Shown one piece after another: positions 22,930-54,736 of a stretch of DNA of 64,000 bases. Source of the stretch: Diatrype stigma (taxonomy: Eukaryota > Ascomycota > Sordariomycetes > Xylariales > Diatrypaceae); assembly GCA_022225965.2 (NCBI GenBank), contig JAKJXP020000003.1, forward strand, positions 310,001-374,000, in the 5' to 3' direction. The notes beneath the pieces are model-generated. The model ran no database searches and was not told the DNA's origin. It saw only the letters and a program-made list of their open reading frames with translations. The stretch's first letter is position 1. The number at the start of each line of letters is the position of its first letter. The translations under genes and the position numbers were made by a program.

Positions 22930-23169
22930 AGCCTAACATACGTACTTATAAGAGTTAAGCAAATTAGGAAATAAAAAAGCTCTACACATAAACCCAGTAA
23001 AAAGATATTATATAAAGATAAAGGATTTTTATTTATATCTTAGTTTTTATATCTTAGTTTTTTAAATTACTTATATTTAGCTTAATAAAACTTCTATCAA
23101 TTCGTTTTTATTACGAATTTTTTAAAATTAAATTCTTTTTATTTTACTTTATTTTTATTTTTTCTTACT

Positions 23170-23581
23170 TTGCTTAAAATAATAATAATAATAACGTTTA
23201 TACTTATAAGTACGTAATTAATGTATTTAAAAGGTTTTATAATTATAATAAATAACGCGTTAACTTTTAAATAATATTTATTAAGTTATAATAAGTTATA
23301 TATAAAGCGTTAAAAGAGTTTATAATTATTTCGAAATTAATATTTAATAGCTTTTTACTTTTTTATTTTACTTATAGGTTATTTTATTAAAAGTAATCGA
23401 AAAAATAATTAAGTTTTAATAAGTACGAAATTTATATATATATTTAATAATATTAAAAAGGCGTTTATTAAAACTTATTATAAAAGTATTTATAAAGAAA
23501 TTAATATAAAACAAATAACATATTTAAATAAAGCCGTATTACTTAATATTAAAAAACTAAAATATAAAAATTAAAATATAA
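23170..23581. repeat. left arm of an inverted repeat flanking gypsy element B
   Basis: Reads inward from a TAATAATAA tract, through TTATAAGTACGTAATTAATG, to the left TSD of element B. The same order of words appears in reverse complement at 54110-54530, most clearly over about 130 bp at the outer side and about 90 bp next to the element. The arms differ in the middle. RIP has degraded both. It probably represents the two ends, or two inverted copies, of an older repeat into which B inserted. Confidence 0.6.
23577..23581. repeat. target-site duplication of element B, left (TATAA)
   Basis: TATAA immediately precedes the LTR edge at 23582 and is repeated at 54105-54109, immediately after the other LTR. 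A 5-bp duplication is standard for LTR retrotransposon integrase. Confidence 0.85.
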
Positions 23582-23787
23582 TATTATAAACGTTCCGGAT
23601 TCCTTGCTTTTAGTTAGAAGTGCCGGCGGCGTCGATAACGTCGATTATATATAAGGGCATAATACTGTTATATAATGCTTAATATTATTTATTACCAATA
23701 TAGGAATAAAGTTATAAAATAATAAAAACATAAATTGCTATAAAATATTAAGAATTCTAAGGATTTTTATATAATTCTTAATAATAT
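23582..23787 (-). repeat. 3' LTR of element B, part 1 (206 bp)
   Basis: Matches the last about 206 bp of the 260-bp gypsy LTR in reverse complement, up to AATAATAT at 23780-23787. The remaining 55 bp of the same LTR lie at 26168-26222, so the LTR was cut by an insertion. Confidence 0.85.
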
Positions 23788-26167
23788 ATATATATAATAT
23801 TACGCGGTCGACGGCCCAAAGGGCCATGTTAATATACGTTTAATTTTAGCATAATAGGAAACCTTAAACCGAAATCGAAAAGAAAAACCTATTGATTCGT
23901 ACCGAAGTCGTTTTTTTAGTTATATACAAAAGGTATTTAAAACGGTTTTTATCCGTTTCTTGTTATAAAAAGGTCCAAAGCTATTTATTAAATTAAAATA
24001 AGATTATAACGCAAAGCCGGTTCGATTTCGCGCCGCAAATATACGGCATACGTATTATTAAATATAATGCCGATATATTAAATAAGCGAAAATAAATTAT
24101 AAAGGAAAAAAGGGCGATACGGAATGGCCCGTATGCCCGGTATATCGCTTCGAATATAAATAAACCATCTATTCCGGCCGGCGTCGACGCGACGACGACC
24201 TAATCGGCAAAACAAATTATATACCGCCTTTAAGATATAAATACCCTGCTTTTTTTTCGTCCGGAAATTTTTCCTTTTTTTTTTTTAATAATAATAACCA
24301 ATCCGATACGTAATTTTTTTTCGTTATCGATTCGACCCTTAGAAATAAAGGCTCGGACCGATTTTTTATTATTTTTTAATTTACTGCAATTATTTTTTTT
24401 ATTCTTTATATTATATGCGAATTCGGGTCGCTTTTGGACGTCCGGAAATCCGAACGTTTAAAATCGATCCGAATTCGCGTAGTTCTTTATTGCTTCCGAC
24501 GTTAATCCGACGTTTATTGATTTCGATAATGTATTATATAATCATTTAATTTTACTTATCCGTTCGCTTTATAATCGATTTCGCTTTGTTTTTTTCGTTT
24601 TATCGTTTTATTACCGTTTTCGCGGCTTAGCCGCTTCGATTTCGTAACGATATTGGGCCCTTTTAAAAAGTCCGTTTCCGATATTTCGATTTATTTCGAT
24701 CTTTTATTAAAAAAAATAAAATACGTACTTTATATATACCGCATAACGAAAAATTCCTTTTTGTTTTATTACGACCGTTATAAGTCGTTTCGTTTTCGTA
24801 TCGTTATATTTCGATATTTAATCGACATAATTAATAAATTTCGTCGATATATTACGTATAAACATTATAAAAAAATCATTTCCGATTGTTACGAAATAAG
24901 CTTTTCGTTTTTTTTTCGAAGTCGTTTTGATTTCGCTTAATTCGCCGATAGTTTTAAGCCCGAATTTCGAAAGTTTTAGTCGTTTATTACGAAATGCCAG
25001 GCGGATCCTATCGAAAACGCGTAAAAGATAAACTAAGATCTTTTATAAGTCGGTTCGTATTAATTCCGTTTTAAAACGTTAAACGTATATACGATATTTT
25101 ATATAAGGCTCGATTCGTTATACGTAAGCGTATTAAAAAGTTATCCGTTTATACGTCGTTTTCGGGCGATTTTTTCGGTAACGTCGTAATAATTACGTTT
25201 ATTTTTATTTGCATTTCGGTCCGTATTTATATTTTAATTTTTTCCGTTTAGGTCCGTAATAAAATAAAACCGATTTTGCGTTTTAAATTTTTAAGTATTA
25301 ATATTTTTTAATTATTAAAGTTTATTAAAATATATCGTTACGATTTTAATCCGGCCTTTTTGTTTAATCCTAACTTTATTCGTAATCGTTCGGCGATCGC
25401 CGTTTTTCCTTTTTCGGCGGTAACGAAAGCTTTTTTTGCATCCAATAAATGCGTTTCCGGCACGTTTTCGGCCGGCTTTCGGGCCGGTCGTTTTTCGTTG
25501 CATTAACGATTAGGTTATAATATTAATGCGGCATATATTTCGTCGTAATTTTAGTTAGCCCTTGTATCGTTTTTGAATTGGCATTAAGCCGTTCGTTTTT
25601 TAATTTATGCATCGTAATTAATTTCCTTGCTTTCGGTAAAACGTCGTTTTATTTTTTTTTCGGGATCGGCTTATAATAAATAAAACTATTTTTGCGGTAA
25701 TTTATTCGTATTCGATACGTCGTTAATCCGTATATATTAAGTCCTATTCGATAAGGAATTAACGTTTCATTTTAATAATAATTTCGACATTAACTTATAT
25801 TATTCGAACCGGCCGAAACGTATTAATTATTTCGTTACGTAATTGGTTAAATTTATGGTCGATAATGCTTCGTCGTATCGAAAATTTTTTAATCCTATTA
25901 GTAATGCCGGTTAAAAATGAACTGCGTTTGGGTAATAATTCAGATAATACGGCAGCGTTTTTTTTTATTACTTATAGGCGTATATCGAAATAATATCGAA
26001 AATACGTCGCTTTACCAAAAAGCTACGTAAGCCAATCTTTTCGGTTTTAGCCTATATTAATATCGAACTTTGGAATTTCGCCAGCGTCTGGTATAATCGA
26101 AGAATGTTTTCGTCGGGTTTGGTTTAGGCCGGTATACGTCGGATTTCCGTTTTATATCGGATTAAGT
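23788..26167. mobile_element. unidentified 2.4-kb RIP-degraded insert inside B's LTR
   Basis: This stretch separates two abutting pieces of one LTR, so it must have arrived after B. It starts with an (AT)n run, then GCGGTCGACGGCCCAAAGGGCC, and ends near CGGATTTCCGTTTTATATCGG. I could find neither terminal inverted repeats nor direct terminal repeats, and no clean target-site duplication (at most one shared base). CpG is kept and CpA nearly absent. Frames of 60-95 aa occur on both strands without recognisable domains. It could be a truncated non-LTR element or a degraded DNA transposon. Confidence 0.65.
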
Positions 26168-26222
26168 TTAAATAAGGATACGTAATATTAAATAATCCTA
26201 GGAATTACTATATTACGTAATA
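26168..26222 (-). repeat. 3' LTR of element B, part 2 (55 bp)
   Basis: Reverse complement of the first 55 bp of the gypsy LTR (ends TATTACGTAATA at the outer edge, corresponding to TGTTACGTAA in the least mutated copy). Together with 23582-23787 it makes one full 260-bp LTR. Confidence 0.85.
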
Positions 26223-28428
26223 TATGTTTTTTTACGAAATGCTATTTACGTTTTCGTAATGGATAATATTTAATATACATAAAAGATACGTAATATTTTT
26301 AATTCTTATAAATTAAAAAGCAATACTCAATTACTTAATAATTTAATCGCATAATTAAAATTAAAAATTTAATTACATATAAATTTAATTCTTATATTAA
26401 AATATTTTGCTTTATTTATTACGTACGAAAATCTTAATATTATTTATATCGTATTATCCATTTGATTTTTTATTTTAAAAGCTATTAACAGTTCCGAATA
26501 TTTTATATTCCGTTTATTTATTTATTCGGTTTGCCCGATAATATATAATATTAATAACTTAAGCTAATTTCCGCGAAATATTCGGCAAAGGTTTCAATAT
26601 TTCATGGTTTGCATGTATTCGTCGTAATTGTTAAAATTTGGTTTAAAATTACGGAATTCGGTTTTAAAATTAAAGGTATATAAAAGCCGGCTTACGGACG
26701 AAATACCAAAAAAAAGCCGGTTCGTAAAAATAGCCTTTTCGGATATTTCTTTTCGGAATTACGGAATACGCGCCCAATAAAAGGCAACGTCGTTAAAGGC
26801 CATAATTTTCGCGTTATTTCCGCATATAATTCGTATGCATTCGATAATATAATTAGCGATTCGTATTTGCCGTTAATTAATATTATTTTGCGTTATTATT
26901 TATAATGTTTCGTTTTTATTTATGGCGAAAATCGCATTCGGCATTTTTTTATTAATAAACCGGAATATTATTTCCGTAAATATAACCAAAACGGCATTTA
27001 GCCGTTAAATAATAATAACTTTTATAACAATAATTTATTATATTTAAATGCTATCGAATTAACAAATATCGATAGCGATTATTAAAAATACTTAAATAAT
27101 ATTTAGGGAAATTTTTAAACGGTAAATTAATAAAAATAAATTATCGGTAAAAGATATTACGGTACCGATTAAATTAAGTTCGTACGAAAAATTAAGATTT
27201 AGTCGGCATTAAATACCGCCGGCGGATATATTTAGCGATATCGTTAAATCGCTAAATAATAAGCGTCCGTAAAAACCGCTAAAAAATAACTAGCTATATA
27301 AGCCGCTTAAAAATAATTTTCTTTATAAGCCATTCGAAGGAATTTTTTTCGAAAATTCATTTTAATTTACTTTTTTTTTATAAGTTATTAAAAAACAACC
27401 TTTTATGTAAGGCATTTATAAGGACTTTTATTTTTAATAATTGCGATATTCGTAAATCATTTTTATTTTCGATAATAATCGGGGCCTATTATTAAGCCGA
27501 TTAAAACGGACGTTATTATTGGTTTTGTTAAAAAAACGCATTAAAGAATATTTAAAAGTTAAGAATTATCCGTAAGTTTCGTTCGTAATTATTATTTAAA
27601 TAATACGAATAATTATTTAAATAACGATAAATATTATTTCGAATATTATTACGGCTAAAACCCGCCTTTATTTATTTTATTAATTACTTTTAAATATAAT
27701 TTCCGATAATTAAAATGTTTTCGAAATATGCTTTAAATAGTTCCTTTTATAAATATTCGGAAATTTCCATTATTACCGTAATTTCGGTATTTCGAAAAGC
27801 TATTAAAAAGCGATTAGCCATTTTAAACGGCAGCGAAATATGTATTATTATGTTTGCCTAAAATATTCGTAATTAATAAATAATAATTAGGGAATTTTAT
27901 ATAATAAAGGGGCTAATAAGTATTACCGGAAATTAAGTATTAAATATATTATATATTATATTAAAGCAAATATATAAATAAGTAATGTTTATTATTTTAA
28001 ATAATTAATAAATAAATTAATAATTTTTTAATAATAATTATTAGCATTATTAATTATTTTTATATAATAAATAAATTATATTATATTAAAAAGGAATATT
28101 AATAAATGCTAAAAAATCGAAATAAAATAAAAGGTAATTGGTTAAGTTATTAAGTTAATATTATAAAAAGAAAGAAAATTATTAAAATATATTATATATT
28201 ATTAAAATCCCTTTATGCGCCTTTTTATATTAATAAGATCGTTTCTATTATTTATATTATTTGCTTTAAGGGAAATCTTTATATTATTAAATTTATTAAT
28301 TAATTCGTATAAATATAAATAATATATAAATAATAAATTAAAAGTTTAAATAATTAAGGAAAAACGATATAATTATTTTTTCGGCATTATTGCCGTTTGT
28401 TTTTGTTTATAAAAGTTTTCGTTTGCTT
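26223..28428 (-). other. element B tail between chromodomain region and 3' LTR
   Basis: About 2.2 kb collinear with 46679-48884 of copy A. It lies downstream of pol on the element's own strand and has no identified function. Near 27.2-27.4 kb it contains degenerate tandem copies of an approximately 26-bp unit that, read on the plus strand, would encode repeats around Tyr-Lys-Pro-Leu. Confidence 0.5.
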
Positions 28429-28436
28429 TAATTATT
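28429..28436. other. empty site for the terminal-inverted-repeat element
   Basis: Copy B has a single TAATTATT here (AATAATTA in the element's orientation). Flanking words match those on either side of the 780-bp insertion in copy A (left AAAGGCGGTCGTTTCGG, right AAGGCAAACGAAAGC). This is the uninterrupted state of the insertion site. Confidence 0.85.
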
Positions 28437-28499
28437 AGCAATTCGTTAATCGAAACGACCGCTTTTGTTTTGTTATAAGTTCTTACTTATTTGAACCTT

Positions 28500-31400
28500 T
28501 TTTTCGGGCTTTATTCGAATTTTTCGCAATTAATTTAAGGGATTAAGCAAAAAGCCTTAGCCGCTTTCGGTTACGTTTTCTTTTTTTTGATATGGTAATA
28601 ATAAATAACGGTTTTCGTATTGGCACCGGAAATTCGTAAAGTTCTTAATTTATGAATACGTCGAATTTTGGAATATATCTTATTTCTTTATCGCATTTTT
28701 GCATTTTTTCCTTAATTGTATTAATTAAATTTTATTATAAATGCCATTTGTCGTATACGGCGTTAAAACTTATTTATCGTATTAAGTATTTAATTTTTTT
28801 CCGGATTATTCGTTTATTTAGTAGCCTTTTTATTTCGAAATATTCATAAAGTTTCCTAAAAATTTCCTTATTTTCTTTAATTTCCATAGCTAATTCTTTA
28901 TGTAACAATATCGAAATTCGTTAATACGGATTATTTCTTGGCGCAATTGCCGGTTTTAAATAAATTATTAATATTACCGAATATATATTCCAAGCCTTAT
29001 TAAAGTTTAATTCGTAGGCTAAATTATTTATTTTATATATTACCTTAAAAAGGCCTACGAATCGAAGGGCCATTTTTTTATTAGGAATATGTAGCAATAA
29101 ATATTCTTTATATAAACGCATTTTAATTTATAATCTCTTTTCGAATATTATCGGCTTATGTTTAGCGTTATATTTTTGGGTTATAATATGAATTATTAAC
29201 GATTCCGTAATTTATGCCGTTTTTCGGAATATTGCAGTTATTAACTAATTAATGGGCCGTTATAATGGTGGTTTTTTTAGGTATATTCGAATATTTATGA
29301 AATATTCGTTAAATAAATATCCAATTCCCATTAATTTCTTATTATTAAGTACCGTTATAAGCCATAATATAGCTTTTGCTTATAACTTTTTAAGATATAT
29401 TTAATTCTAATACCGAAATGCCGTTTTTATCGTTTAATTCTTACGTTTAAATAAATTATTTACTTATAAATAATAGGTTATTATGTATTATTAATATATT
29501 TTTATTGCTAATTATATTTTATATTATATTTCTTATACGAATTTCGTGTTTTTATTCGTAATAATTATTCTTAGGATTTTCCAATTACTTATTAATAACT
29601 ACCGATTAATCATAAATCTCCAATTTTTATCGGAATATTATAAATGCTTTAAAACAATTAAAATTATTTTAAATGCTTTATTTATAATTATTATAAATGC
29701 ATTAAACGAATCGAATTCGGAAATCGACCATTTTATATGGGCAAATTTTATTAATAACATAGCCGTAACGATATTTAACGTAACCGTATAAAACGAAACT
29801 AAAAATGCCTAAATTGGTTACAACTTTTTATATAACTAATAACGCAATATTCGAATATTATTACATATTAAACAGTACTTTATATATTTTTTTATACTTT
29901 TTTATATTTATAAAATGTAATACGATAATATAAATTCTTTTTACGTTGCTATAATGCCTTAATAAAAGCGTTTATTATAGCATTTTTTTAATACTTTTTG
30001 TTTATATATATGGAATATATATAAGCGTTTATTTAATAACGGACTTTTAAAATATAACAATTCATTTTCGTTAAAACGAAACGTTACGTTTTTTATTGGC
30101 TAATTGTTATTACGTAACTTTTTTAGGTTTTTTACGACCTTACGTTATTATTTCCGATTATCGATTTTATATTTTTCGCATATCCTTTTTTTAAAATCCT
30201 TAATAAGGCTTATTATATTCGCTTAGTTTTTATTTTTAAGGGCTTTTTTTATTAATAAGTCCTTAATTAGGAATATCGTATTTAAAGTATTTTCTTTTAA
30301 AAAGGCATTATTATTGCGAATCGATAATCGTAATAACGTATTTAACATTATATTAAAGTTTTTAAATATATATATTATCGATAACGAATATTCCTTTAAA
30401 AATATTAAGGCCGTTTATAACCGATAATTAGCTTTCGTAATATTTTGGGTTTTTAAATTTTTTTTAATAATGCTTTTAATAATATTATAATTAATAAGTA
30501 CTATTATCGAAAGCTTTTTCGTAAATTTAATATATATCCGTAATTTCTTAATTGCTTATATTAAATATATTACTTTTAGCTTTATAGGCCAATATATTTT
30601 TTTCGCTTGGCTAATGCATTTGCTTAAATATAATATAAGGCGCATAATTATTTTAAATATTTAGCTTTTTCCGTTTTAGGAATATTCCGGAATTATATGG
30701 AATAGCATTATTTCGAAGCCATTTTTGAACGCATTTAATTAAATAAACGCCTATGCAATCAAATCGAAATAAATTAAGATGGTTTTTTTAAGTAATGCAT
30801 TCTTAATGCGTTAAAAAAATTCCAATTTCTTATTTTTTAGTTAAAAACTAATATTACGGATATAAACATTACGTTACTGCTTATTAAAAATTTTGCTTTG
30901 GTTTCGTTTTTGTTTTAATAGCTAAATCTTAAAATATTTAAGGGACTTATTATAATGGGCATAATTTTTTATTAAGTGCTTTAATTAATTTATAAATCCA
31001 ATTTAATACTTTAAATTATTAAAATTCGTAAAGGGCTTAATGCAACGAATGGCTTCCAATTTCTTTTCCGTTATTTATAATTTAAAGCCGTTTATTCGAA
31101 AGCTTAATAATTATATTAACGAATATCTTATAAAGGATTTCTTAAAAAAAAGTAACAATTTAATATTTTTAAATACTATAAATATCTGGTTTAAATATTT
31201 TAAATACTGTTTTTAATTATTAAAGAATATTATAATATCGTTAATATAAATTACTAAATAATGCTTATAAGGCTTTAAAATTCGGTTAATTTATTGTTAT
31301 ATAAATAAGGGTAAATTTTTAAAGCTTATGAATAATACATTTAAACGTTTTAATCCTTTATAATTAACGATAATAAAAATGTTTTGGAATCCTTTTTATA

Positions 31401-31993
31401 TTAAAAACTAATAAAAAAACTTTTTAATATTTATTATAATAATGAATTTTTTTTTACGCAATTTCGCCGTTATTTCGTATTATTTAAATAATAAATATGC
31501 GTTTTTTAATATTACTTTATTTTATAATCGTAGGTTTATAATTATTCGTTTTTTATATATGCTATTTTTAATAATTCAAATTACGAAACAAATTATCGCA
31601 AAAAAAATAATTCGTAATTAATAATTTATGCGGCCCGTATTATATAATAATTAAAAGATTTTATTAATAACTTTTTGCTTAATAACGCTTTATAAATAAA
31701 GCCTAGCTATAATTTTATGTTTATATTATTTTAATATTAGCTTAATAATTATTTGCTTTTTTTTAAAAAAAATCGATAATATCTTTATTTTTTTATATTT
31801 TCGTATGTCGTAATAATAAGTTTTAAATACGAATTAAAAATGTTTTATTCTTAATATAAATATATATTTCTTTAAACGTTTTCGTTTTTTTTAGATTATT
31901 AAAACGCCTTGCTTTAAGTTTAGGATTCCGATTTTTGATTAATTTATTTAGGAATTTCTTTTTATTTTTTTTAATTATTAAAAATACGATATC
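28500..31993 (-). pseudogene. gypsy pol remnant of copy B (RT, RNase H, integrase, chromodomain)
   Basis: Collinear with 42326-45820 of copy A in reverse complement. The RT catalytic box falls near 31237-31248 and reads YIND rather than YIDD, a single G-to-A change of the RIP type. An integrase C-terminal segment with readable frame is at 28921-29121 (VIYKINNLAYELNFNKAWNIYSV). Multiple stops make it non-coding. Confidence 0.75.
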
Positions 31994-32178
31994 TATTAAT
32001 AGGTACGTACGTATAATCAAAGAAAGCAAATAATAATTGGGCGAGACGGTTATATATTAAAGTATTTAAAATAGGAAGAAATTTATTTAAAGAATTGCTG
32101 GCGAAAACTTGCAATTATATAGAACTAACTTACTTATATAATGGCAACGCGTGCCAGCGCGTTGGAATATAACCATTA
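31994..32178 (-). repeat. 3' LTR of copia element X (185 bp)
   Basis: Same length and sequence order as 49361-49545, differing mainly by transitions. Ends are TA...TA, consistent with TG...CA after RIP. It carries a 7-bp-stem palindrome (CAACGCG, loop TGCCAG, CGCGTTG) at 32145-32164, unchanged in both LTRs. Confidence 0.85.
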
Positions 32179-33149
32179 TTTACTTTGTTTTCTTTCGCGA
32201 TTTAATCGCAAACTATGCCGTCGGCTTAACTATATAATTCTTTATTTTTTAAATTATTACTTTCTTTTTATTCATTCTTTTAATTTTAGATTAATTTCGT
32301 TACGATTAATTAACGACTTTATCGATTCATTAAGAAACGCCTTCGTTATGGCGTTAACCGGATTACAGCTGCTATAAATTTATCGAATCTTATTTATCTC
32401 CTTATTTTTATATAATTAACGAAAAGCCATAAAATTAATTATTAATCGCTTTTCGTTAATGCTTTCCATTTATACCAAGCATTAATATAAAAAAAAGGAA
32501 TTCGTATAAAAAACGAACGAAACGCGGAAAAAAGTTAAACGTTTTAGAATCGTATTAATAATGCAATAAATGACGTATTTAACGTTAAAGCCTTATATTA
32601 TGTTATAAATTTCGCTAGCAAAAACGTTCCGAATTATTTTTTTACATTTAATAAACGACCAATAAATAACATTATTAACGACGATAAGCTTATTAATTTA
32701 GGACATAAATTTTTCGTTTTTAAATATAATAACGTATTTAATTTATAAGTTTAGGTCCTTATTATTCGTAAAAAATCCATTAACGAAAACATATAATCGA
32801 AAATCCTAAGGATTTAATTAAATATAATTAAATCCGCGGTTTTTATTGTTTATTTATTACTAAATCCGGGCGTTTAATAACTTAGCCTTTTTAAAGCCAG
32901 GTTTCGTATATTAAGCAATCGTAAAATAATTAAAAGCTATTTCGGATTAGCAGATAAAAGAAATATAAGCTTTTCGGGCTTTTTGTTTAACATATTTTTT
33001 AAATATATCCGATACCTTAAGATCGAATAATGCCAGCTTTTTAACTTGTTCTTTTTGGGTCGCTAAAAAGCCGTTTTCTTTTAAATAAACGATTAAACGT
33101 AAACCGTTAAAGTCCTTTATAGCCCCGTTTTTTAGGATTTTTTACGGAC

Positions 33150-33520
33150 GCGCCTTAATGTTAATTTTAATTAATGCTTTTTTTTTTATAAAGTTTATTA
33201 TGCCAATATTAAGAATATTATTAATTTAAAGGCCTATTATGCCAAATAATTATTCGATATGGATTATTAATAGGCATAAATTAAATGGCGAAAAATTTAT
33301 GTATAGCTTTTATTAATAATGGCGAAAATAAGTTTTAAATTAATATATACCCGATTTAATTAATCCGTATAGCGGCTTTATAATACGCAATATCGTTTTT
33401 TCGGGATACTTATTTTTTAATTCCAATAACAGTCGTATAAAAATAATACGTTTCATAAACGTTTTTAATTAAATATAAACCATTATAATGTTTCGAATTA
33501 TAACCTTTATATTTTAATAT
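33150..33520 (-). pseudogene. copia reverse transcriptase remnant
   Basis: On the minus strand the segment reads ILRIIKPLYGLIKSG, then FKTYF, FNLCLL, FGIIGL and the degraded DD box (NNI). These blocks occur in the order expected for fungal Ty1/copia RT. A stop replaces a Gln codon just before the DD box, as CAA to TAA would by RIP. Confidence 0.7.
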
Positions 33521-35099
33521 CGTAACGTAAATGCTAAGGCCATAATTAATCGTTAATTTGCCTTTTAAATAATAAGGGCATACGTTATTATAAAATTTTT
33601 ATCGGGATTTTTATATTCTTAAACGACCAGTCGGAACTTTTTATAAGGGCCTAATATATTTTTTTCTTTTATTTCGCAAATCATTCAGAACTTAAAAATA
33701 ATAGCCTTTTAATAAATGGCTTTATTATAAATAACCGATTATAATATACCATTTTCGAATAAGGCATTAAGTTCCTTTATATCCGAGGCTTCGTATGGTT
33801 TGCTAGGAACTACGATTTTACCTTTTATTCGTAACTTAATTGCTAAGGCGCGGTTATGTTTTTTTTTTGCGCTAAAATACGTTACGTTAAAAAATAATAT
33901 ATTAAGGTTTTTTTCCGGGATAATGTCGTAATTCGCTAAATTAAAGCCTGGTTTTGGTTTGGATAATTTAATTTTTAAGTTTTAAGGCGGCTTTGTATTA
34001 TTCTTAAATTGCATATATGGCTTAATATACGAACTTTTAAACGTAAAGATTTTTCCAAATATATTCGAAGCGATTATAACGTCTTTATTAGTAACGGCGA
34101 TAATTTTATATGGATCTTGCCATTTATTTTTTTTGCGGTATATAAATATTTCGCTACCGAAAGATAATAATATGAATAACGTTTTCTAAATATTAAGGCC
34201 GTTCTTAATATTTAATGCGTTCCGGATTAAACGCTGGGCCTTAATCCTTTTAATTTCGGCCATTACTTTTTGGACTACGATTGCCCTTTAGGTTTGGAAC
34301 GGCATAAACGGCGAATTCATATTAATTTTCGGATAAGCCCTAAAAACCAATAAAATAAATACAAAACTATCTGGATTTGCTGTATTATTAATAGCCTTAA
34401 CGGTTATTTATAATCGGAATACGCATAAGCCTTATATTTCTTTAAAGATAATTTTATACGTTCGTCGGATAAGTCCGTAATATTTTTTAACCTTGCCGAT
34501 AAATTAATAGGCTTTTATTAAAACCTGTTTATACGTAATACCGATAAATCAAGCTTTATTTCGGAATTCGGTATTATTAAAATTAATACCGGCATCGTAA
34601 ATAAAAATATTAAGGGATTTTAAATAAGTATCGATTTAATAAAACTTAAGGGCTTTTTAAATTTCCTTTATTAATATATTAGCTATAAATCGTATTACTT
34701 AAAAACTTATAACCGTATCGATAATATAAAAAACGAAACGTTTATCGAAATATATAACGTCCATAATAACCTCGTAATTAAAATCTAAGTTCGGATTTTT
34801 AAGGATAAACTTAAACCGTTAAAAAGCCTTTTTTTTAATTTAGCAATAATAACAGAATTTATTAATTTCTTTAATGTTTTTTAAATTAATATCGTATCTT
34901 GTTTTTTTTAATAAGTCTTAAAGCTTAACGACGGAAAAATGGCTAAAGCGAATATATAAACGACGCAGCTTTATTTTTATAAAAAAGATTGCGTTATTAA
35001 AATAAAACCATAAATGTTCCTATTTTCGATTAATAAGAACCGTAATATTATTTTTATAAATTAATTAATTAATAACGTTATTAAGATATACGTTAAATT

Positions 35100-43800: not shown

Positions 43801-45780
43801 AGCCTTTAGTAATGGTATTTATTAATTATAATGCCATTAAAGGCATTATCGAAAAGAAAAATTTGAAAATCCAGAACGTTACAAAAATTAATTACCGGCT
43901 ATAAGCGGTTTTAATATTTTTAAGGGAATATCCGTTATCGGTAATACATATATTTAGGAATTTTAATATAATGCCAAATACGTTATTATAATTACCGGTC
44001 CGCAATAGCAATGCTCCTTTAAGGGAAAGTATTTTGGATATGATATTCTTAATTAAGGATTTACCAATAAAAGAAATTTTTAAAAGTAAAAGCTAAACGA
44101 ATATAATAGGCCTTATTAAGGATTTCAAAAAAAAGATATGCGAAAAATATAAGGTCGATAGTCGGAAATAATAGCATAAGGTCGTGGAAAACCTAAAAAA
44201 GCTACGTAATAATAACCAACCGGCAAAAGACGCGACGTTCCGTCTTAACGAAAATGGGCTGTTATATTTTAAAAGTCCATTATTAAATAAACGTTTATAT
44301 ATATTCCATATATATAAACAAAAAGTATTAAAAGAATGCCATAATAAACGTTTTTATTAAGGCATTATAATAACGTAAAAAGAATTTATATTATCGTATT
44401 ATATTTCATAAATATGGAAAAATATGGAAAGATATGTAAAGTATTACTTAATATGCGATAATATTCGAATATCGCGCCATTAATTATATGGGAAGTTATA
44501 ATTAATTTAGGCATTTTTAGTTTCGTTTTATACGGTTACGTTAAATATCGTTATAGCCATGTTATTAATAAAGTTTGCTTATATAAAATGATCGATTTTC
44601 GGATTCGATTTGTTTAATGCATTTATAATAATTACGAATAAAGCATTTAAAGTAATCCTAATCGTTTTAAGGCATTTATAATATTCCGATAAGAATTAGG
44701 GATTTATGGTTAATCGATAATTATTAATAAGCAATTAAGGAATTCCAAAAATGGTTATTACGGATAGGAATACGAAATTCGTATAAGGAATATAGCATAA
44801 AATATAATTAATAATGAAAATATATTAATAATATATAATAGCTTATTATTTATAAGCAAATAATTTATTTAAGCGTAAAAATTAAACGGTAAAAACGGCA
44901 TTTCGATATTGGAATTAAATATATCCTAAAAAGTTATGGGCAAAAATTATATCATGGCTTATAACGGTATTTAATAATAAGAAATTAATAGAAATTGAAT
45001 ACTTATTTAACGAATATTTTATAGGTATTCGAATATATTTAGGAAAATTATTATTATAACGGCCTATTAATTAGCTAATAGCTGCGATATTCCGAAAAGC
45101 GGCATAAATTACGGAATCGCTAATAATTCATGCCATAATTTAGAGATATAATGTTAGGCATAAGCCGATAATATTCGAAAAGGGATTATGGATTAAAATG
45201 CGCTTATATAAAGGATATTTATTGCTATATATTTTTAATAAAAAAATGGCCTTTCGGTTTATAAGCCCTTTTAAGGTAATGTATAAAATAAATGATTTGG
45301 TTTACGAATTGGATTTTAATAAGGCTTAAAATATATATCCGGTAATATTAATAACTTATTTAAAACCGGCAGTTGCGTCGGAAAATAATCCGTATTAACG
45401 AATTTTAATACTGTTACGCAAAGAATTAGCTATAAAAATTAAAAAAAATAGGGAAATTTTTAAGGAATCCTATAAATATTTCGAAATAAAAAGGCTATTA
45501 AATAAACGAATAATTCGGAAAAAAGTTAAATACTTAATACGATGGATAGGTTTTAACGTTGCATATGATAAGTAGTATTTACGGTAAAATTTAATCGATA
45601 TAATTAAAAAAAAAATGCAAAAATGCGATAAAAAAATAGAACACATTCCAGAATTCGACGCATTTATAAATTAAGGATTTTACGAATTCCCGGTACCAAT
45701 ACGAAAATCGCTACTTATTATTACTATACTAAAAAGAAAAGGGCGTAGCCGAAAGCGGCTAAGGCTTTTTGCTTAATCCT
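40900..45780 (+). pseudogene. gypsy pol of copy A (protease, RT, RNase H, integrase, chromodomain)
   Basis: Protease active site reads NTGA near 41035 (DTGA expected). RT box VIYINDIIIFF is at 43062-43094, with YIND at 43068-43079 in place of YIDD. RNase H begins LDASKNGFGIMLFHI near 43580. Integrase core shows DRNTKF near 44760 and a KN-TVKTA-RY segment near 44880. A chromodomain (KYLIRWIGF...AYDK) follows at about 45530-45600. Each key Asp-to-Asn change is a G-to-A transition. Many stops show it is dead. Confidence 0.85.
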
Positions 45781-45882
45781 TTAAATTAATCGCGAGAAAT
45801 TCGAATAAAGCCCGAAAAAAAAATCCGGATAAATAGGGACTTACAGCAGGACAAAGGCGGTCGTTTCGGCTAGCGAGTCGCT

Positions 45883-45890
45883 AATAATTA
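45883..45890. repeat. 8-bp target-site duplication, left (AATAATTA)
   Basis: AATAATTA precedes the element at 45891 and is repeated at 46671-46678. Copy B has one copy at the same site. Confidence 0.88.
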
Positions 45891-46670
45891 GAGAATTGCT
45901 AAATCTGCAGTGATTTCCATTGCTAGATCTGCAGTGGCCCGCATTGGCAGCTGTCATAACCGTTAGGTTCTGCTAGCCATATATTAAAGCTTCAAATGCA
46001 ATATACTGCTAAATCACACCTATTTTCCATTCCTTCTGCATCATACAACCCCTATACTATACTTTAGCAAATTCGTACAATGTCACCGCCCATAATACCT
46101 CATTGCAGCCTTTAAAACGGCTTCAACCCTCCGTCAAATCAACAGAATCAGCTATAGCCGATTCGGGTACGTATATACCGGGCTCAAGCTCGAAATGCCC
46201 GTCCGGCACACCCGCCGCACGGCGCGCAGCAGCAGCTTCCACCCTTCGGCTGCGCCGAAGGCCTATAACAGCCCCTTTCCATTACAGAAGCCCTCGATTT
46301 TGTAAGCAGTATAAGCCGGGAGTCATTCCGCCCCCCCTGGTGCCCCCTCGAGCAATACCCCCTCGAGCAATACTTCGGCATCGGCAGCCGGCCTACCACC
46401 ATAGGGACCGTCTTCTTCGGGATTCGGGATCGTCGTCATTTTGTAACTGGGAATGGTTGCAGAATAACGTTGTGGAAGGTGGGTGGTTGTTGTTCTGAAG
46501 CTGGTTCGAATTGCTTCAGCAATTAGGTGGGCAACTAGGTGGGCAACTAGGTGGGCAGCTAGGTGGGCAACTAGGTGGGCAGCTAGGTGGGCAGCTAGGT
46601 GGCTACAGCAGGTGGCAGGCGGGTTACTGCAGATCTAGCAATGGAAATAACTGCAGATTTAGCAATTCTC
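45891..46670. mobile_element. 780-bp non-autonomous terminal-inverted-repeat transposon (hAT-like)
   Basis: A GC-normal segment inside RIP-mutated gypsy copy A. Ends are 45-bp inverted repeats with one mismatch (45891-45935 and 46626-46670), starting GAGAATTGCTAAATCTGCAG. Each end contains two near-identical 16-bp words (TTGCTARATCTGCAGT) 24 bp apart, like subterminal transposase sites. The 8-bp TSD fits hAT or related superfamilies; the terminal bases are not the usual CAG-type hAT ends, so the superfamily is tentative. The longest frame (131 codons, 46103-46498, first codon ATG-like alternatives uncertain) has no transposase motif, and 780 bp is too short for a transposase, so it is non-autonomous. 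CpA and TpG are intact, so it escaped RIP. Confidence 0.88.
46525..46602 (+). repeat. 12-bp minisatellite inside the TIR element
   Basis: Six and a half head-to-tail copies of AGGTGGGCARCT. The only variation between copies is A or G at one position. It lies near the right end of the 780-bp element. Confidence 0.9.
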
Positions 46671-46678
46671 AATAATTA

Positions 46679-48884
46679 AGGCAAACGAAAGCTTTTATAG
46701 GCAGAAGTAAACGGCAGTAATGCCGAAAAAATAATTACATCGTTTTTTCTTAATTATTTGAATTTTTAATTTATTATTTATACATTATTTATATTTATAC
46801 GAATTAATTAATAAATTTAGCAATACAAAAATTTTCCCTAAAGCAAATAATATAAATAACAAAAACGACCTTGCTAATATAAAAAGGCGTATAAAGGAAT
46901 TTTAATAATTTATAATACATTCCAATAATTCTTTCCTTTTTTGTAATATTAACCTAATAACTTAATTAATTACCTTTTATTTTATTTCGATTTCTTAATA
47001 TTTATTAATATTCCTTTTTAATATAATATAACCTATTTATTATATAAAAATAACTAATAGTATTAATAATTGTTATTAAAGAATTATTAATTTATTTATT
47101 AATTATTTGAAATAATAGGAATTATTTATTTGCATATTTGCCTTAATATAGCATATAATATACCTAATATTTAATTTCCGGTAATACTTATTAATTCCTT
47201 TATTATATAGAATTCCCCAATTATTATTCATTAATTACGAACATTTTAAGCAAGCATAATGGCATATATTCCGCTGCCGTTTAAAGTGGCTAGCCGTTTC
47301 TTAACGGCTTTCCGAAATACCGAAATTACGGTAATGATGGAAATTTCCGAATATTTATGGAAGGAGCTATTTAAAATATATCCCGAAAATATCTTAATAA
47401 TTAAAGGTCGTATTTAAAAGCAATTAATAAAATAGGTAAAAGCGGGTCCTGGCCGTAATAATATCCGGAATAATATCCGTTATTATTTAAGTAATTATCC
47501 GCATTATTTAAACAGCAATTACGGGCGAAATTTGCGGATAATTTTTAGCCTTTAAGCGCTTTTTGGCGCGCTTTTTTAACGAAACCAACGATAGCGTTCG
47601 TTTTAACCGGTTTAATAGCAGGCTCCGATTATTATCGAGAATAAAAATAACTTACGAATACCGTAATTATTAAGAATAAAAGTTCTTACGAATGCCTTAT
47701 ATAAAAGGCTATTCCTTAATAGCTTATAAAGAAGAATGGATTAAAATAAACTATTAGGAAAAGTTTTTCCGAATGGCTTATAAAAAAGACTGTTTCCGAA
47801 CGGTTTATATAGCCAGTTATTTTTTAACGGCTTTTATGGACGCCTATTATTTAGCGGCTTAGCGATATTGCTGGATATATCCGCCGGCGGTATTTAATAC
47901 CGACTAAACCTTAATTTTTCGTACGAATTTAATTTAACCGATACCGTAATATCGCTTATTAATAATCTATTTTTATTAACTTACCGTTTGGAAACTTTTC
48001 CGGATATTATTTAAATACTTTTAACAATTATTACCGATATTCGTTAATTCGACGGCATTTAAATATAACAAATCATTATTATAAAAGCCATTATTACTTA
48101 ATAATTAAATGCTGCTTTAATTATATTTACGGAAATGGTATTTCGGTTTATTAATAAAAAAATACCGGATGCGATTTTTGTTATAAATAAGAACGAAGCA
48201 TTATAAGTAATAACGCAAAATAATATTAATTAATAACGAATACGAATCATTAATTATATTACCGAATATATACGAATTATATATAAAGGTAACGCGAAAA
48301 TTATGGCCTTTAACGACGTTGCCCTTTATTGGGCGCGTATTCCGTAGTTCCGAAAAAAAAACATCCGAAAAAGCTATTTTTATAAGCCGGCCTTTTTTTG
48401 GTATTTCGTTCGTAAGCCGGCTTTTACGTATTTTTAATCCTAAAACCGAATTCCGCGATTCCGAATTAAAGTTTAATAATTACGACGAACGTATGCGAAC
48501 CATAAATTATCGAAACCTTTGCTAAATACCTTACGGAAATTAACTTAAATTATTAATATTACATATTACCGGGCAAACCGAATAAGTAAATAAACGGAAT
48601 ATAAAGTATTCGGAATTGCTAATGGCTTTTAAAATGGAAAATCGAATAAATAATACGATATGAATAATATTAAGGCCTTCGTACGTAATAAATAAAGCGA
48701 AATACCTTAATATAAGGATTAAGTTTATATGCGGTTAAGTTTTTAATTTTAATTATGCGGTTAAGTTATTAAATAATCGAATATTGCCTTTTAATTTATA
48801 AAAGCTAAAAATATTACGTACCTTTTATATATATTAAATATTACCCATTACGAAAACGTAAATGGCATTTCGTAAAAGAACATA
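46679..48884 (+). other. element A tail between chromodomain/insert and 3' LTR
   Basis: About 2.2 kb conserved in order with copy B (28428-26223), so it belongs to the retrotransposon family. Fungal gypsy elements usually end soon after integrase. Degenerate tandem repeats of about 26 bp lie at 47760-47880. The best surviving frame (48319-48525, plus strand) is short, and antisense reading of the repeat gives a Tyr-Lys-Pro-rich series. Whether it encodes an extra or antisense gene, or regulatory sequence, cannot be decided here. Confidence 0.5.
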
Positions 48885-49144
48885 TGTTACGTAATATAAT
48901 AATTCCTAGGATTATTTAATATTACGTATTTTTATTTAATATTATTAAGAATTATATAAAAGTTCTTGGAATTCCTAGTATTTTATAGCAATTTATGCTT
49001 TTATTATTTTATAACTTTATTCTTATATTGGTAATAAGTAATACTAAGCATTGCATAACGGTGCTATGCCCTTATATATAGTCGACGTTATTGACGCCGC
49101 CGGCACTCCTAGCTAAAAGCAGGGAGTCCGGAACGTCCATAACA
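48885..49144 (+). repeat. 3' LTR of gypsy copy A (260 bp)
   Basis: Starts TGTTACGTAA and ends CCATAACA, followed by TSD CTGTC at 49145-49149. Differs from the 5' LTR by transitions at many sites. Confidence 0.92.
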
Positions 49145-49360
49145 CTGTCCGTATATTGCTAATAGCACTTTAAGCCGAGGTTTCGGTTTATTTATATTCC
49201 GATATGGCTATTAATGAAAATAATAATAAGGATAGGATTCGAAATATAGGCATATAAAAATAAAAAGAAATTGCAATATTATCACGATGTTTTTAATATC
49301 GTGGTAATAACTTTTTTACCTTATTAATTTATGTTGTTAATATTTAGCAATATTAATTAA

Positions 49361-49545
49361 TATTAATAAATACGTACGTATAATTAAAGAAAGCAAATAA
49401 CAATTAGGCGAAACGATTATATATTAAAGTGTTTAAGGTAAAAAGAAGTTTATTTAAGGAATTGCTGGCGGAAGCTTGCAGTTATATAAAACTAGCTTGC
49501 TTACATAATGGCAACGCGTGCCAGCGCGTTGGAATATAACCATTA
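49361..49545 (-). repeat. 5' LTR of copia element X (185 bp)
   Basis: Pairs with 31994-32178. On the minus strand it begins TAATGGTTATATTCC and is followed by about 211 bp of copia leader before the gypsy A insertion. The palindrome CAACGCG...CGCGTTG is at 49512-49531. Confidence 0.85.
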
Positions 49546-49550
49546 ATATC

Positions 49551-52500
49551 CGTATTTATTTTTTTTGCTTTACGTAAAGCTATTCGTTATATTTATCGGA
49601 ATATTTTTTTTGGCTTTTTATAGCTTTCGTATATATTAAGTTGTTTTTTCGTATTCGCTGCTTCGTTTTTTAAGCTTAAGGATTAACTTTTTATATTATT
49701 TCGCTTTTCTTTATTTTTGGCATGCTTATAAATGCTTTTAAATGGCTTTTTAACGTTTTTAAACGGCTTTTTAATGCTTTCGGGCATTTATTTATCGCTT
49801 TTAAGTAATTTCTTAATGTTTTCGGTTATTTATTTATTATTTTTAAATAACTTTTTAATATTCCTAGCTTGTTGTTTTATATTTTTAAGCTTTGGTTTAT
49901 AATATTCGGCTATTTATTTAACCATATTGGCTTGTTTTTTTTTTCGGTTTTAAAATATACTTATTAATTTTTATTATTATTAAATACTTGCTTTATTTTT
50001 CGGCCATAATAGCTAACGTTTTTTTAAGAAACTTAATATTATTACTTATAAGCCTTAAGGATTTGGGTTTATTATTCGTTCCAATTTAAAATATCGGATT
50101 AAACTTAATATGGATTGCTAAATTTATATGCATGCCAACAATTCGACGGACCTTTTTATAACTTTTTAATAACTAACGTATTTCGGTCGGTATTTTTAAA
50201 TTAATATTATTATAATACTAAAAATATTATATTATTTCGGTTAATGGCATATAATAATTTAATTTTTGGCTTTTTAATATGTTTATAAGGCTTTATTTAA
50301 TATTAACAACTTTAATTTATCGTTTTTCGTTAATAATATAAGGCATTACTTTTAACGTATCGGAATTAAAATAATAATTAATGCCTTATCGTAATTAAGC
50401 GTTTTTTTTTTCGATACAAATTAGGCATATAATGTTATTCCTTAAACGCAAAATAAATTGCTTTTTAATATATGTTTTAATTTTTTGCTTATTTGCCTTT
50501 AAGTAAAACGTAACGTTTATTTTAACGTTATTACATTAATTAATGCGTAAATAGCGATTTTAAATAAATATATTAATTCCGTATTAATACAAAAAGTTAT
50601 TTCCTAATAATAATTCGATAAAGAATTTTGGAAATATTTAAGCCTTAAATTGGAAACGCATTTTTATACGGCGGCCTAAGTGCTGTTTTATTATTATAAA
50701 TGTATCCGTTATTTTGGCTAAGCTGTAAACCTTTTGTTTTTTTATTCCGGTTATTCCTTATATTTGCGTTTCGTCGATAATTACGTTCTCGCATTTATAT
50801 AGGATGTTTTCTTTAATAAGCTAAATATTTACGCCGATATCGATATAAGCCGTATCGGGTAATACCTAATTAATTTTATCACATAAGTACATTTTTATAT
50901 ATAAATAATTCGTAAAGTTTTCTAAACCGTATCCGAATTTATTAGGTTCTAAAACGAATTCCAAGGGGGCCATTGGAATGCGGCGACTTTTTTCGGCTAA
51001 GTTAAAATAATAAAGGCGCCTTTCGATAATTTCCTAAAATTAAATATAAATTTTTAGGTTATTATCGGTTATAAACTTAAAATAGCAATTCTCGTAATAA
51101 AATAAAATATCGTTTATTATTTGTTAAACCTTATTATGTAATTTTTTTAGGCCGTATTTTAATTAAGGGTTATTATTATTATTATCGTTAATACCGTTAT
51201 TAGCTTTAGGCGTATTTACGATATTGGTACGTTTTTAGGTTTTATTTGTATTTTTATTTTTTATTCCAAAAGTTTTGCTAATTTAAAACCGGTTATTAAT
51301 ATGCAATGCCGATTTGATTTGTTTTCCGGATTTTTCGGCTATTAAGGAATCCGATCGACGTTTTTATCGGTAATAAGTCGGACGTTTGTCGGAAAAAAAC
51401 GCAATATTATCGAAACGGATTTTATTAATGTTACATAATGCGGTAATCTTAAAAAAAGATTTACGAAAGGGTTTTATATTAATTTAATTAAGCATATAGG
51501 CGTTTATAATTTAAGTAATCCTTTTAATAATGCATTGCTTATTAAAATAATCCAGCATAAATAGCGTTATACGTAATTTTAAAAATAATAAGGTACGAAC
51601 TTTATTTTTTAATTCCTAATTAATATAATTCGACATTTCGGTTAACGTTTCGATTTGCGTTATTTAAGTCTTTAATTTAAATTTTTTAATTTAATTCCAG
51701 CCGTATTTATATATTCGAAACGTTCGGATTGCTATTAATTGCCTTATATTAAAACGGGCCTTAAAATAATTCCGTAATATATTTAGTAATTATTTATTAC
51801 GAATTATTTGGCGTTTTTTATAAGTAAGTTCGGTTATTTATTAATTTGCAATTTCGTTTTTAAAACAAAGGTAAAAATTAAATAGGATTTTCTTAATAAC
51901 TTTAAAACTTTTAAATGCTTAAGCCTTAAATATTTTTAATTACGGAATATAATTAAACCATATTATCGATCCGTTAAAACCAATAGTCGAAATAAATTCC
52001 AGGCGTTTTCGGTAATTTTAAAAATCGAAAAACCCAAAATTTTTAACGTGAAATTTTCAGGTTTCCGTATTGCTACTTATACGTCCAATTAGGGCTTTTA
52101 ATAATCGAATAGTCCATTCGGAATTATTAGGGGCGTCCGTATTCGTAAGGCGGCTTCGGTATTCCGGTTATTTTGGAATTTAAATGGCCTGTTTTAATGC
52201 GTTCCATAATTGCTAAAATCGAAAAAACAATTAATTGTTTTTAAAATTTTCCGGACGTAATGCAAATTATTAAATATATATCGATAATTAATTATTAAAA
52301 AATATTTCGTTTCGTTATAATAAATATTTCCGTAATAACGTTCCGTTTCGTATATACATTTAAGAATTCCGCTTAATATTATTAATAATATAATAATTAT
52401 TAAAAAGTTCCGTTTACGTTTAAGCATTAAATGGCTTTCCGTAAAAATATTTCTTATATCGTTATAATATATTGTCCGGCGTATATAATCCAAATGGCCT

Positions 52501-53844
52501 TATATAGAATTATATTTTTAGGCGACGTAATTCGTTAACGAAATAATCGGTTTTTTTAATAACGGACGGTTATTAATAATGCTAAAAATCGATATTTTTT
52601 CCGCGGCGACGATTTTTTCCGATAAAGGTATCCTTTTTTATGGTTTCCATAAATATCTTAAATTATTTAAATCATTTTTTAAAATAATGCTTTATTTTAA
52701 ATTTTTCTTTATTATTAAAATAAAATTAATTTGCCGATATAATAAAGGTACGATTAAATTGCTTTCGTTCGGATATAATAAAGTTAAGCATAATTATTAA
52801 CTTTTCAAAAATTTTTCGTACCGTTTTCGATGCCGGCTATTTTAGGTCCTGGACGAACGATATTCGTCGGGAAATTCCGTGCCGATCTGTATGCATAGGA
52901 ATTTTTAGCTTTAAATCGTTCGGTTAAAATAAATTCCTTGGATTTATTTAGCTTTCTTAAATAGTTAGGTTTTTTACCGAAAGGTCCTTAGGTATTAACG
53001 AATTATTCTTTTTTGCGATAATAACGAACGTATCGTATAAAAGGAATTTTAAAATAGCTAACGACTTTTAAAAGGTAGCTTTTTTTTTTTTAGGAATTAA
53101 TCCTATTAAAAAAACCGTTAATCTTTCCGTATTAGCTGTACGTTCCAAAAAAGGAAAAGATTTTCCCGAACGTTTAAACTTTTTGATTAACGAAAGTTCC
53201 GCCTTAATAATGTTATTCGTTAAAGAATTTGGCGATTTTTTTTATTAACGTAATAATACTAGAAAGTTTTAAAACTTTCGAATTCCTTTTTTAATACTTT
53301 TCTATAAGGTTATAAAAACTACCGATTCCGATACCGGCTATATAATTATATCCAGTCCTTTATCGTATATCGTTTTTATCCATTACATAATTTTTTTAAT
53401 TCGCATTAAAAAAATAAACTAAAGTTTCGAAAAATCCCAAATATTCGTTAAATTTATAATCGTAAGTTATAAATTAATAAATTCGAATTCCTATATTACT
53501 AGCAATTAAAGCCAATTCTCGTATAAAGCAAAAAACGCCTTTTTTTGCTTATAAGGCGCGTTATAATAAATTATCAAAAAGGCTTTATAAAAAGCCGTAA
53601 GCAATGTTACGTTTTCGTTTATAAATTCGTTATTTAATTTAAATAATTCCTTTAAGGTAATTAGGATTTTATTTATTTAAATCGATACTTAATTAATTTA
53701 TTTCGAAACAGTTCGGGCCTTTTAATTTTTTTTGCCTATCGTAAGATTTAAAGGGATTTACGTTTTTAACGGTTATGCGTCGTTTTCGAAATTTAATAAA
53801 TTATAAACAATTAATGCTGGATTTTAATTAAAAATGCTACCATA
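49551..53844 (-). pseudogene. gypsy gag and protease region of copy B
   Basis: Reverse complement collinear with 38029-42322 of copy A (position in A plus position in B is constant at about 91,873). The matching 99-codon segment is at 52194-52493. It is interrupted by RIP stops and ends at the copia insertion, beyond which pol resumes at 31993. Confidence 0.8.
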
Positions 53845-54104
53845 TATTATAAACGTTCCGAATTCCTTGCTTTTAATTAAAAATGCCGGCGGCGTTAATA
53901 ACGTCGATTATATATAAAGGCATAATACCGTTATGCAATGCTTAATATTACTTATTACCAATATAAGGGTAAAATTATGAAATAATAAAAGCATAAATTA
54001 TTATAAAATACTAAGAACTTTAAGGATTTCTATATAATTCTTGGCAATATTAAATAAAAATACGTAATACTAAATAATCCTAGGAACTACTATATTACGT
54101 AATA
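53845..54104 (-). repeat. 5' LTR of gypsy copy B (260 bp)
   Basis: Reverse complement of the gypsy LTR, bounded outside by TATAA (54105-54109). Inside, the leader TATGGTAGC matches TATAATAGC of copy A after two G-to-A changes. Confidence 0.9.
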
Positions 54105-54535
54105 TATAAATAAAAATATTTTTTAATTATATTTCTTCGTTATTTATAAGAAATACTCTTATTTAAATCTTAATTTTTACATTTTAATTTTTTAATATTA
54201 AATAATAACGCTTTTCTTATTAAATGCGTTATTATTCTTTATACTTATCGCCTTTTTATAAATAATCTTATAATAATATAAGATTTAATTAATAGCTGTT
54301 TTATATTACTTAATTTATATATAAACCTAGTACTTTTTAAAGTTCGATTATTTATATGGCTTTTCTTAATAATGCTTTATATATAGCCGCTTATTATAAC
54401 TTAACGAATAAATATTACTTAAAAGCTAAGGCATTACTTATTATAACTATAGGGCCTTTTAAATGCACTAGTACTTATAAATATAAGCGTTGTTATTATT
54501 AAACTTGTTATTATAAACCCGTTTAAAAAGAAAGG
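54105..54535. repeat. right arm of the inverted repeat flanking gypsy element B
   Basis: Reverse complement matches 23170-23581 in order and spacing (for example ATTTATAAGTACTAGTGCATTT against ACTTATAAGTACGTAATTAATGTATTT shapes). A roughly 70-bp stretch next to B (54110-54180) has no partner on the left and may be the original spacer between arms. The element's own identity is unknown. Confidence 0.55.
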
Positions 54536-54736
54536 AAATAAACAGCCTGGAAGCACTTAACTTATAGGCGCAGGTGCAGGTGGCTGGCAAAGATTCGCGA
54601 CAGTGGTGGACCGTCAGAGATTTATCGGGCCGATTACAGGTGGTACAGAAAACTAAGGTGTAGAAACTAAGGTGTGAATAGGAGTACTCCTTATAAGGGC
54701 ATTCCCCGACGTCTCTGTATGTGGCCTTGAATTATT

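What the first reader, a model, noticed from the sequence alone, without database searches (positions are those of the whole stretch)
22930..54560. Five-layer nested transposon stack resolved by target-site duplications
Four insertions have perfect duplications: B (TATAA), copia X in B (ATATC), gypsy A in X (CTGTC) and a TIR element in A (AATAATTA). Removing each restores continuous sequence, and the internal lengths of A and B then agree to within a few bases (about 10,068 and 10,065). This gives a relative order: inverted repeat, then B, then X, then A, then the TIR element, with a further insert in B's LTR at an unknown later time.
Basis: seen in the sequence. Interest (0 to 1): 0.75.

Follow-up and report, generated by a model that had tools for sequence, protein, structure and literature searches.

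The report
Nested, RIP-mutated transposon stack in fungus
A 31-kb stretch of a wood-dwelling fungus's genome is a set of mobile elements that jumped into one another in a readable order and were then heavily mutated, most likely by the fungus's own anti-transposon system; it is a clear example of a common thing.

Summary
Four insertions have exact target-site duplications at element ends: B (TATAA), X (ATATC), A (CTGTC), TIR element (AATAATTA). Relatives read through the unoccupied site, cleanly for X, A and the TIR element, and only 14-23 bases past the junction for B. After subtracting inserts, LTR-to-LTR spacing is 10,328 (A) and 10,325 (B), against 10,323 in two other copies. The nest is five deep. 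Two parts left open are resolved: the "inverted repeat" under B is two oppositely oriented copies of a ~0.55 kb MITE, and the insert in B's LTR is a 5'-truncated LINE (2,381 bp). A/B are Ty3/gypsy-type (RT over Pfam cut-off; integrase zinc finger and chromodomain weak). X as copia is only weakly supported. All 90 LTR-LTR differences (698 sites) are transitions; A versus B shows 1,555 transitions, 28 transversions in 10,385 sites. That is repeat-induced point mutation (RIP) of a recently spread family. The host matches Diatrype stigma, whose published assembly is short-read, so long reads are still needed. Nested, RIP-mutated islands are well known in ascomycetes; this is an ordinary but unusually clean case. 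In passing: RIP here prefers (A/T)C(A/T) and largely spares CpG, and the innermost element is unmutated.

The parts
23020..23581 (.). MITE copy Lm, left part (rest 54110 to about 54121): the element that B inserted into; no matching 8-bp duplication found for this copy
   Evidence: body and end match to genome relatives L058-L068 and to copy R; left end placed by eye
23577..23581 (.). target-site duplication TATAA of B, left copy (right copy 54105-54109)
23582..54104 (-). B: Ty3/gypsy-type LTR retrotransposon, interrupted by LINE and X; left LTR 23582 to about 23786 + 26168-26222, right LTR 53845-54104
23787..26167 (-). 5'-truncated LINE inserted in B's left LTR; (TA)n tail and 3' end at the left; no clear target-site duplication
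   Evidence: copies anchored at this 3' end with variable other end; longer copies carry an RT, L036 over Pfam RVT_1 cut-off, L039 not; junctions
31989..31993 (.). target-site duplication ATATC of X, left copy (right copy 49546-49550)
   Evidence: unoccupied site in A
31994..49545 (-). X: LTR retrotransposon (probably copia; strand rests on that reading), LTRs 31994-32178 and 49361-49545, interrupted by A
37764..37768 (.). target-site duplication CTGTC of A, left copy (right copy 49145-49149)
   Evidence: unoccupied sites in 8 X relatives
37769..49144 (+). A: second copy of B's family inside X, opposite orientation; LTRs 37769-38028 and 48885-49144; RT motif near 43068, integrase zinc finger near 44325, chromodomain near 45528
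45883..45890 (.). 8-bp target-site duplication AATAATTA of the TIR element, left copy (right copy 46671-46678)
   Evidence: unoccupied sites in B, L034, L035
45891..46670 (.). 780-bp non-autonomous TIR element, not RIP-mutated (GC 0.51); terminal inverted repeats begin GAGAATTGCTAAATCTGCAG
   Evidence: same 8-bp duplication rule in the C36 copy, TATATAAT twice
54151..54689 (.). MITE copy R, opposite orientation to Lm; duplication TTTATAAG 54143-54150 / CTTATAAG 54690-54697 (one C/T difference); RIP-type excess only in about its first 200 bp

Best explanation
A sequence of ordinary transpositions built the stack in one AT-rich island of a chromosome that matches Diatrype stigma. (1) A MITE (Lm) was present; a second copy (R) lies beside it in opposite orientation. 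(2) Gypsy-type element B integrated near Lm's end. (3) LTR element X integrated in B. (4) A, another member of B's family, integrated in X about 210 bp inside the LTR at 49361-49545. (5) A 780-bp TIR element integrated in A. At some time after B, a 5'-truncated LINE landed in B's left LTR. RIP mutated C to T in the repeated layers, so that LTR divergence measures RIP and not age. Shown: nesting, duplications, unoccupied sites, collinearity, transition-only LTR divergence. Inferred: that each layer moved by the mechanism of the family named, and that RIP (rather than another C-to-T process) made the transitions.
For: Exact duplications; unoccupied sites in relatives; collinearity A-B; LTR-to-LTR spacing of other copies: gypsy 10,323 in C55 and C61, X 5,913-5,994 in eight other pairs against 5,986 here; LTR pairs A 42 ts/0 tv in 260 sites, X 21/0 in 185, B 27/0 in 253; A-B 1,555 ts/28 tv. 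Domains. RIP load: on a piece of about 1.55 kb in 10 family copies B has the highest share of mutated variable sites (0.574) and A the third lowest (0.467); B has 3 private transversions (as has L055) against 1 in A, as expected if B is older but far too few to be significant. The genome holds DNA_methylase frames (PF00145: 7 matches, 6 of them without stops).
Against: The published D. stigma assembly is Illumina-only (passages of PMC12217926), so no read spans 31 kb. X has no domain hit. Lm and the LINE have no clear duplication, and the unoccupied site for B rests on 14-23 bases beyond the junction. Other A/B-family pairs are spaced 10,233, 10,754 and 16,557, which I did not examine. Transversion counts are too small to confirm the order independently. 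Methyltransferases were not sorted into RID or DIM-2.
Confidence: 0.93

Rival explanations
1. Assembly artefact: reads from similar repeats were joined so that separate insertions look nested.
For: Short-read assembly; the families have many copies (40 candidates scored each for X LTR, A LTR and LINE, more not scored).
Against: False joins would not be expected to place exact duplications at four pairs of element ends or to keep collinearity and length. RIP makes family copies about 13-18% different, so short reads should tell them apart (inference).
Confidence: 0.04
2. Some layers arose by recombination, inversion or gene conversion between copies (A is inverted relative to B) and not by insertion.
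For: A and B lie in opposite orientation in one locus; Lm and R are adjacent and inverted with no duplication found for Lm.
Against: A has its own two LTRs and a duplication in X, and X relatives read through the site. A and B are no closer to each other in transversions (0.16 and 0.37% on two pieces) than to other copies (A 0.11-0.40%, B 0.26-0.45%). For the Lm/R pair a rearrangement is not excluded.
Confidence: 0.03

Closest known systems
AT-rich, RIP-mutated nested transposon islands of ascomycetes (e.g. Leptosphaeria maculans; recalled, with search listings)
   Same: Gene-poor AT-rich block made of nested, transition-mutated LTR elements next to normal genes
   Different: Here five levels are resolved at base level with duplications and unoccupied sites; the RIP context includes CpT
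Nested LTR retrotransposons of plants (search listing and start of abstract of PMC6911290)
   Same: LTR elements inserted in LTR elements
   Different: LTR-LTR divergence cannot be used as age here because it is RIP-type only
CpA plus CpT RIP signature of Magnaporthe oryzae, Botrytis cinerea, Sclerotinia sclerotiorum (passages of PMC4352252 and PMC2621366)
   Same: C-to-T changes at CpA and CpT in transposons; there associated with a RID/Masc1-type methyltransferase
   Different: Here the base 5' of C also matters (A or T favoured) and CpG is little touched; the papers' passages that I saw give dinucleotides
RIP in Pestalotiopsis fici (passages of PMC4320822; a genus found in a search for Xylariales)
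   Same: Low RIPCAL indices for both CpA (0.35) and CpT (0.42)
   Different: Its authors call the pattern classical CpA to TpA; no nested stack in the passages seen

Membership tests
Ty3/gypsy (A and B) | Reverse transcriptase of the retroviral/gypsy type | tested here: met
   RVT_1 2.6e-7, 31.0 bits over cut-off 29.6, on a 274-residue piece of A with X at stops; same motif in B at 31248 by pattern
Ty3/gypsy (A and B) | Integrase downstream of RT | tested here: inconclusive
   Integrase_H2C2 0.0009 (19.8 bits, cut-off 25.5) downstream of RT; the rve piece gave no match
Ty3/gypsy chromovirus | C-terminal chromodomain | tested here: inconclusive
   Chromo 0.0099, 16.2 bits under cut-off 25.1
LTR retrotransposon (A, B, X) | Paired direct LTRs flanked by a short duplication | tested here: met
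   260/260, 185/185, 260 with an insert; 5-bp duplications
Ty1/copia (X) | RVT_2 reverse transcriptase | tested here: inconclusive
   No RVT_2 hit in Pfam for pieces of X or of L011 and L013, none in X with a local profile of 8 RVT_2 copies, no protein-database hit, none of the 98 listed genome RVT_2 matches lies in the window; weak hhalign match in the expected register, probability 15.8, E 0.0016
LINE (insert in B's LTR) | Non-LTR reverse transcriptase in longer copies | tested here: met
   RVT_1 1.8e-7 over cut-off in L036; the L039 piece gave none; two frames of the window copy gave none, as expected since the RT lies beyond its truncation
LINE (insert in B's LTR) | Shared 3' end, variable 5' truncation | tested here: met
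   38 of the first 40 of 57 rows (window's own row included) begin at query base 1 and end at varying points (40 of 62 candidates scored)
LINE (insert in B's LTR) | Target-site duplication | tested here: inconclusive
   none clear; at most about 1 bp by eye, masked by the (TA)n tail
hAT-type non-autonomous TIR elements (45891-46670; MITEs Lm, R) | 8-bp duplication and terminal inverted repeats | tested here: met
   TIR element: window copy and C36 copy exact. MITE: of 4 relatives with both ends found, L060, L064 and L065 exact, L059 7 of 8; of the window copies R 7 of 8, Lm none found. 8 bp is not unique to hAT (recalled)
hAT-type non-autonomous TIR elements | Related autonomous transposase | not tested
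   No transposase search was made; one 161-residue frame of the TIR element gave no Pfam family over cut-off
RIP | C-to-T transitions in repeats, context-biased | tested here: met
RIP | RID/DIM-2 methyltransferase | tested here: inconclusive
   DNA_methylase frames present (7 matches), not classified

The most novel reading that the evidence does not exclude
The stack works as a RIP clock that needs no outside dating: nested layers of known order all carry RIP, and the innermost element carries none although relatives of it look mutated (C204 against C60: 131 ts, 18 tv; C60 against the window copy: 41 ts, 1 tv). This would mean that RIP in this lineage weakened or stopped between the insertion of A and of the TIR element, and that its RIP enzyme reads (A/T)C(A/T) while sparing CpG.
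Probability: 0.2. Interest if true: 0.45.

Novelty: new member of a known kind. Interest (0 to 1): 0.25.

Why it matters
It is a clean, base-level record of the order in which several transposon families were active in a Diatrypaceae genome, and it shows that LTR divergence in a RIP-active fungus must not be read as age. It also gives a trinucleotide RIP context for a Xylariales genome; the one Xylariales-related RIP report whose passages I saw (PMC4320822) gives dinucleotide indices.

Tried and rejected
Copia identity of X: Pfam on X-masked pieces, tblastn of intact stretches from RVT_2 loci against the window (no hit), a local RVT_2 profile (with one row in the wrong orientation, repeated correctly: best E 0.89, in an X-family locus, L012; none in the window's X), protein database (none at E 0.001 among 511 candidates). 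Only hhalign gave a weak match. Kept as probable only.

Pfam on ten stop-to-stop fragments gave nothing over cut-off. rve over the genome: 12 matches, none in the window. Rfam: none in the window at gathering scores.

TSD letters as a snapshot of RIP state at insertion: uninformative. AATAATTA and ATATC have no preferred site. CTGTC is intact in both copies here and altered in 7 of the 8 relatives.

Local copy hypothesis (A made from B): not supported.

Reading all low GC in MITE R as RIP: rejected. Its core is also AT-rich in relative L060; excess T/A states lie mainly in 54151-54350 (38 of 45 transitions, against 12 of 24 in the rest; one relative only).

RIP papers on Eutypa lata: PMC9007359 has none of the RIP terms in its main text.

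Full report
Setting. The window lies in a 49.0-Mb, 224-contig fungal genome. The ORF at 54737-56785 (minus strand) is 100% identical over its length to a 784-aa protein named SLS62_000723 of Diatrype stigma on a 994,876-base contig, the length of our contig C3. A paper that calls its D. stigma assembly the only public one gives 49.15 Mb, 420 contigs, Illumina NovaSeq (passages of PMC12217926). That it is the same assembly is my inference; the held copy has fewer contigs, for a reason I did not find. GC by kilobase falls from about 0.45-0.65 to 0.17-0.33 between 23 and 55 kb, apart from 0.42 at 46-47 kb where the TIR element lies, and is 0.21-0.30 again from 59 kb.

Nest. Self-comparison shows the inverted blocks between A and B and the direct LTR pairs. 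Exact ends: B 23582-54104 with TATAA; X 31994-49545 with ATATC; A 37769-49144 with CTGTC; TIR element 45891-46670 with AATAATTA. Random agreement of 5-mers in the block is 0.0050, of 8-mers 0.00026. Unoccupied sites: 8 of 11 other X loci for A-in-X; A for X-in-B; B, L034 and L035 for TIR-in-A; for B-in-MITE five relatives, 14-23 bases beyond the junction.

Lengths. A less the TIR element and one duplication has LTR-to-LTR spacing 10,328; B less X, one duplication and the LINE 10,325. Same-strand neighbours elsewhere give 10,323 twice, 10,233, 10,754 and 16,557 (40 of 92 candidates were scored). X less A and one duplication gives 5,986; eight other pairs give 5,913-5,994, one 5,446, and three neighbours lie 12 kb or more apart (40 of 80 scored).

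Bottom layer. The arms called an inverted repeat are two copies of a short TIR element in opposite orientation. Relatives L060 and L065 show terminal repeats of 43-45 bp starting about GAGTACTCC. Of 11 relatives scanned, 4 have both ends recognisable: L060, L064 and L065 have exact 8-bp duplications, L059 7 of 8. Copy R (54151-54689) has TTTATAAG / CTTATAAG. Copy Lm (23020-23581 plus 54110 to about 54121) holds B near its right end; I found no duplication for it.

Insert in B's LTR. It is 2,381 bp (23787-26167; the left edge is uncertain by a few bases in a TA run). Genome copies share the left end and stop at variable points on the right; longer copies continue and carry a reverse transcriptase about 3.3 kb from the 3' end, over the Pfam cut-off in L036 but not in L039. 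So it is a 5'-truncated LINE on the minus strand. It is younger than B; its order relative to X, A and the TIR element is unknown.

Families. A: RVT_1 over cut-off, then integrase zinc finger and chromodomain below cut-off, in gypsy order; the rve piece gave nothing. X: reads on the minus strand by recalled resemblance to fungal copia polyproteins; tests were weak or negative. The TIR element has four further copies or partial copies (C36, C60, C204, C86) and a 69-base fragment on C37.

Mutation. LTR pairs: A 42 transitions in 260 sites, X 21 in 185, B 27 in 253, no transversions. The first, crude alignments of B's LTR included bases of the LINE and flanks and showed 3 and 11 transversions; aligned without those bases there are none. 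A against B: 1,555 transitions, 28 transversions, 10,385 sites (27 in the separate alignment). Among the gypsy pieces compared, pairs show 0-0.51% transversions and about 13-18% transitions; on 1,550 gap-free columns of 10 copies there are 12 private and 1 shared transversion sites, a star-like pattern of a recent spread followed by separate RIP. B carries more one-sided C-to-T type differences than A (959 against 596).

Context. The estimated mutation chance per copy is highest for TCA, TCT, ACA and ACT in the gypsy pieces and the LINE; in X the order is TCA, ACA, TCT, with TCC (0.34) just above ACT (0.30); NCG is 0 to 0.10 throughout. CpA plus CpT signatures are known from M. oryzae, B. cinerea and S. 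sclerotiorum, and Pestalotiopsis fici has low indices for both.

Escape. The TIR element is not RIP-mutated (GC 0.51; 718 matches, 10 transitions, 4 transversions against C36), while C204 shows 131 transitions and 18 transversions against C60, and C60 41 and 1 against the window copy. Either it came after RIP weakened, or its small copy number or length let it escape; these cannot be told apart here.

Literature. Searches for nested, RIP-mutated islands and for relative dating by nesting gave listings. I saw passages of five papers (PMC12217926, PMC4352252, PMC2621366, PMC9970103, PMC4320822), a term count of a sixth (PMC9007359) and no whole paper. Of the nine papers in the Xylariales search I opened two, so I cannot say whether this RIP context is already reported for that order.

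Verdict. It is a textbook-type nest in a RIP-active fungus, refined here at its base and at the LTR insert.

Noticed in passing
window 23582-54104 and loci L010-L020, L034-L044: RIP-type changes prefer C between A/T and A/T and largely spare CpG in three unrelated element families, closer to the CpA+CpT pattern of M. oryzae than to pure CpA.
   Followed up: partly
45891-46670: The innermost TIR element is GC-rich and unmutated inside a RIP-mutated element; family copies elsewhere (C204, probably C60) are transition-rich.
   Followed up: partly
54151-54689: MITE copy R shows RIP-type excess mainly in its first 200 bp (against one relative), so RIP seems to fade within about 250 bp of B's edge; R's duplication ends 40 bp from the end of the neighbouring reductase ORF.
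   Followed up: partly
60138-60443: Another LTR of the A/B family with about 45 bp of internal sequence lies in the next AT-rich block, where the match stops.
   Followed up: no
54737-58202: An NRPS-like/thioester reductase gene sits between two AT-rich blocks; its ORFs are split (introns or damage) and the annotated protein (784 aa) lacks the PF00501 domain that many relatives have.
   Followed up: no
37769-49144: The A/B family is long for a fungal gypsy element with 260-bp LTRs (recalled): about 4.5 kb before the RT and about 2.4 kb after the chromodomain without an assigned function.
   Followed up: no
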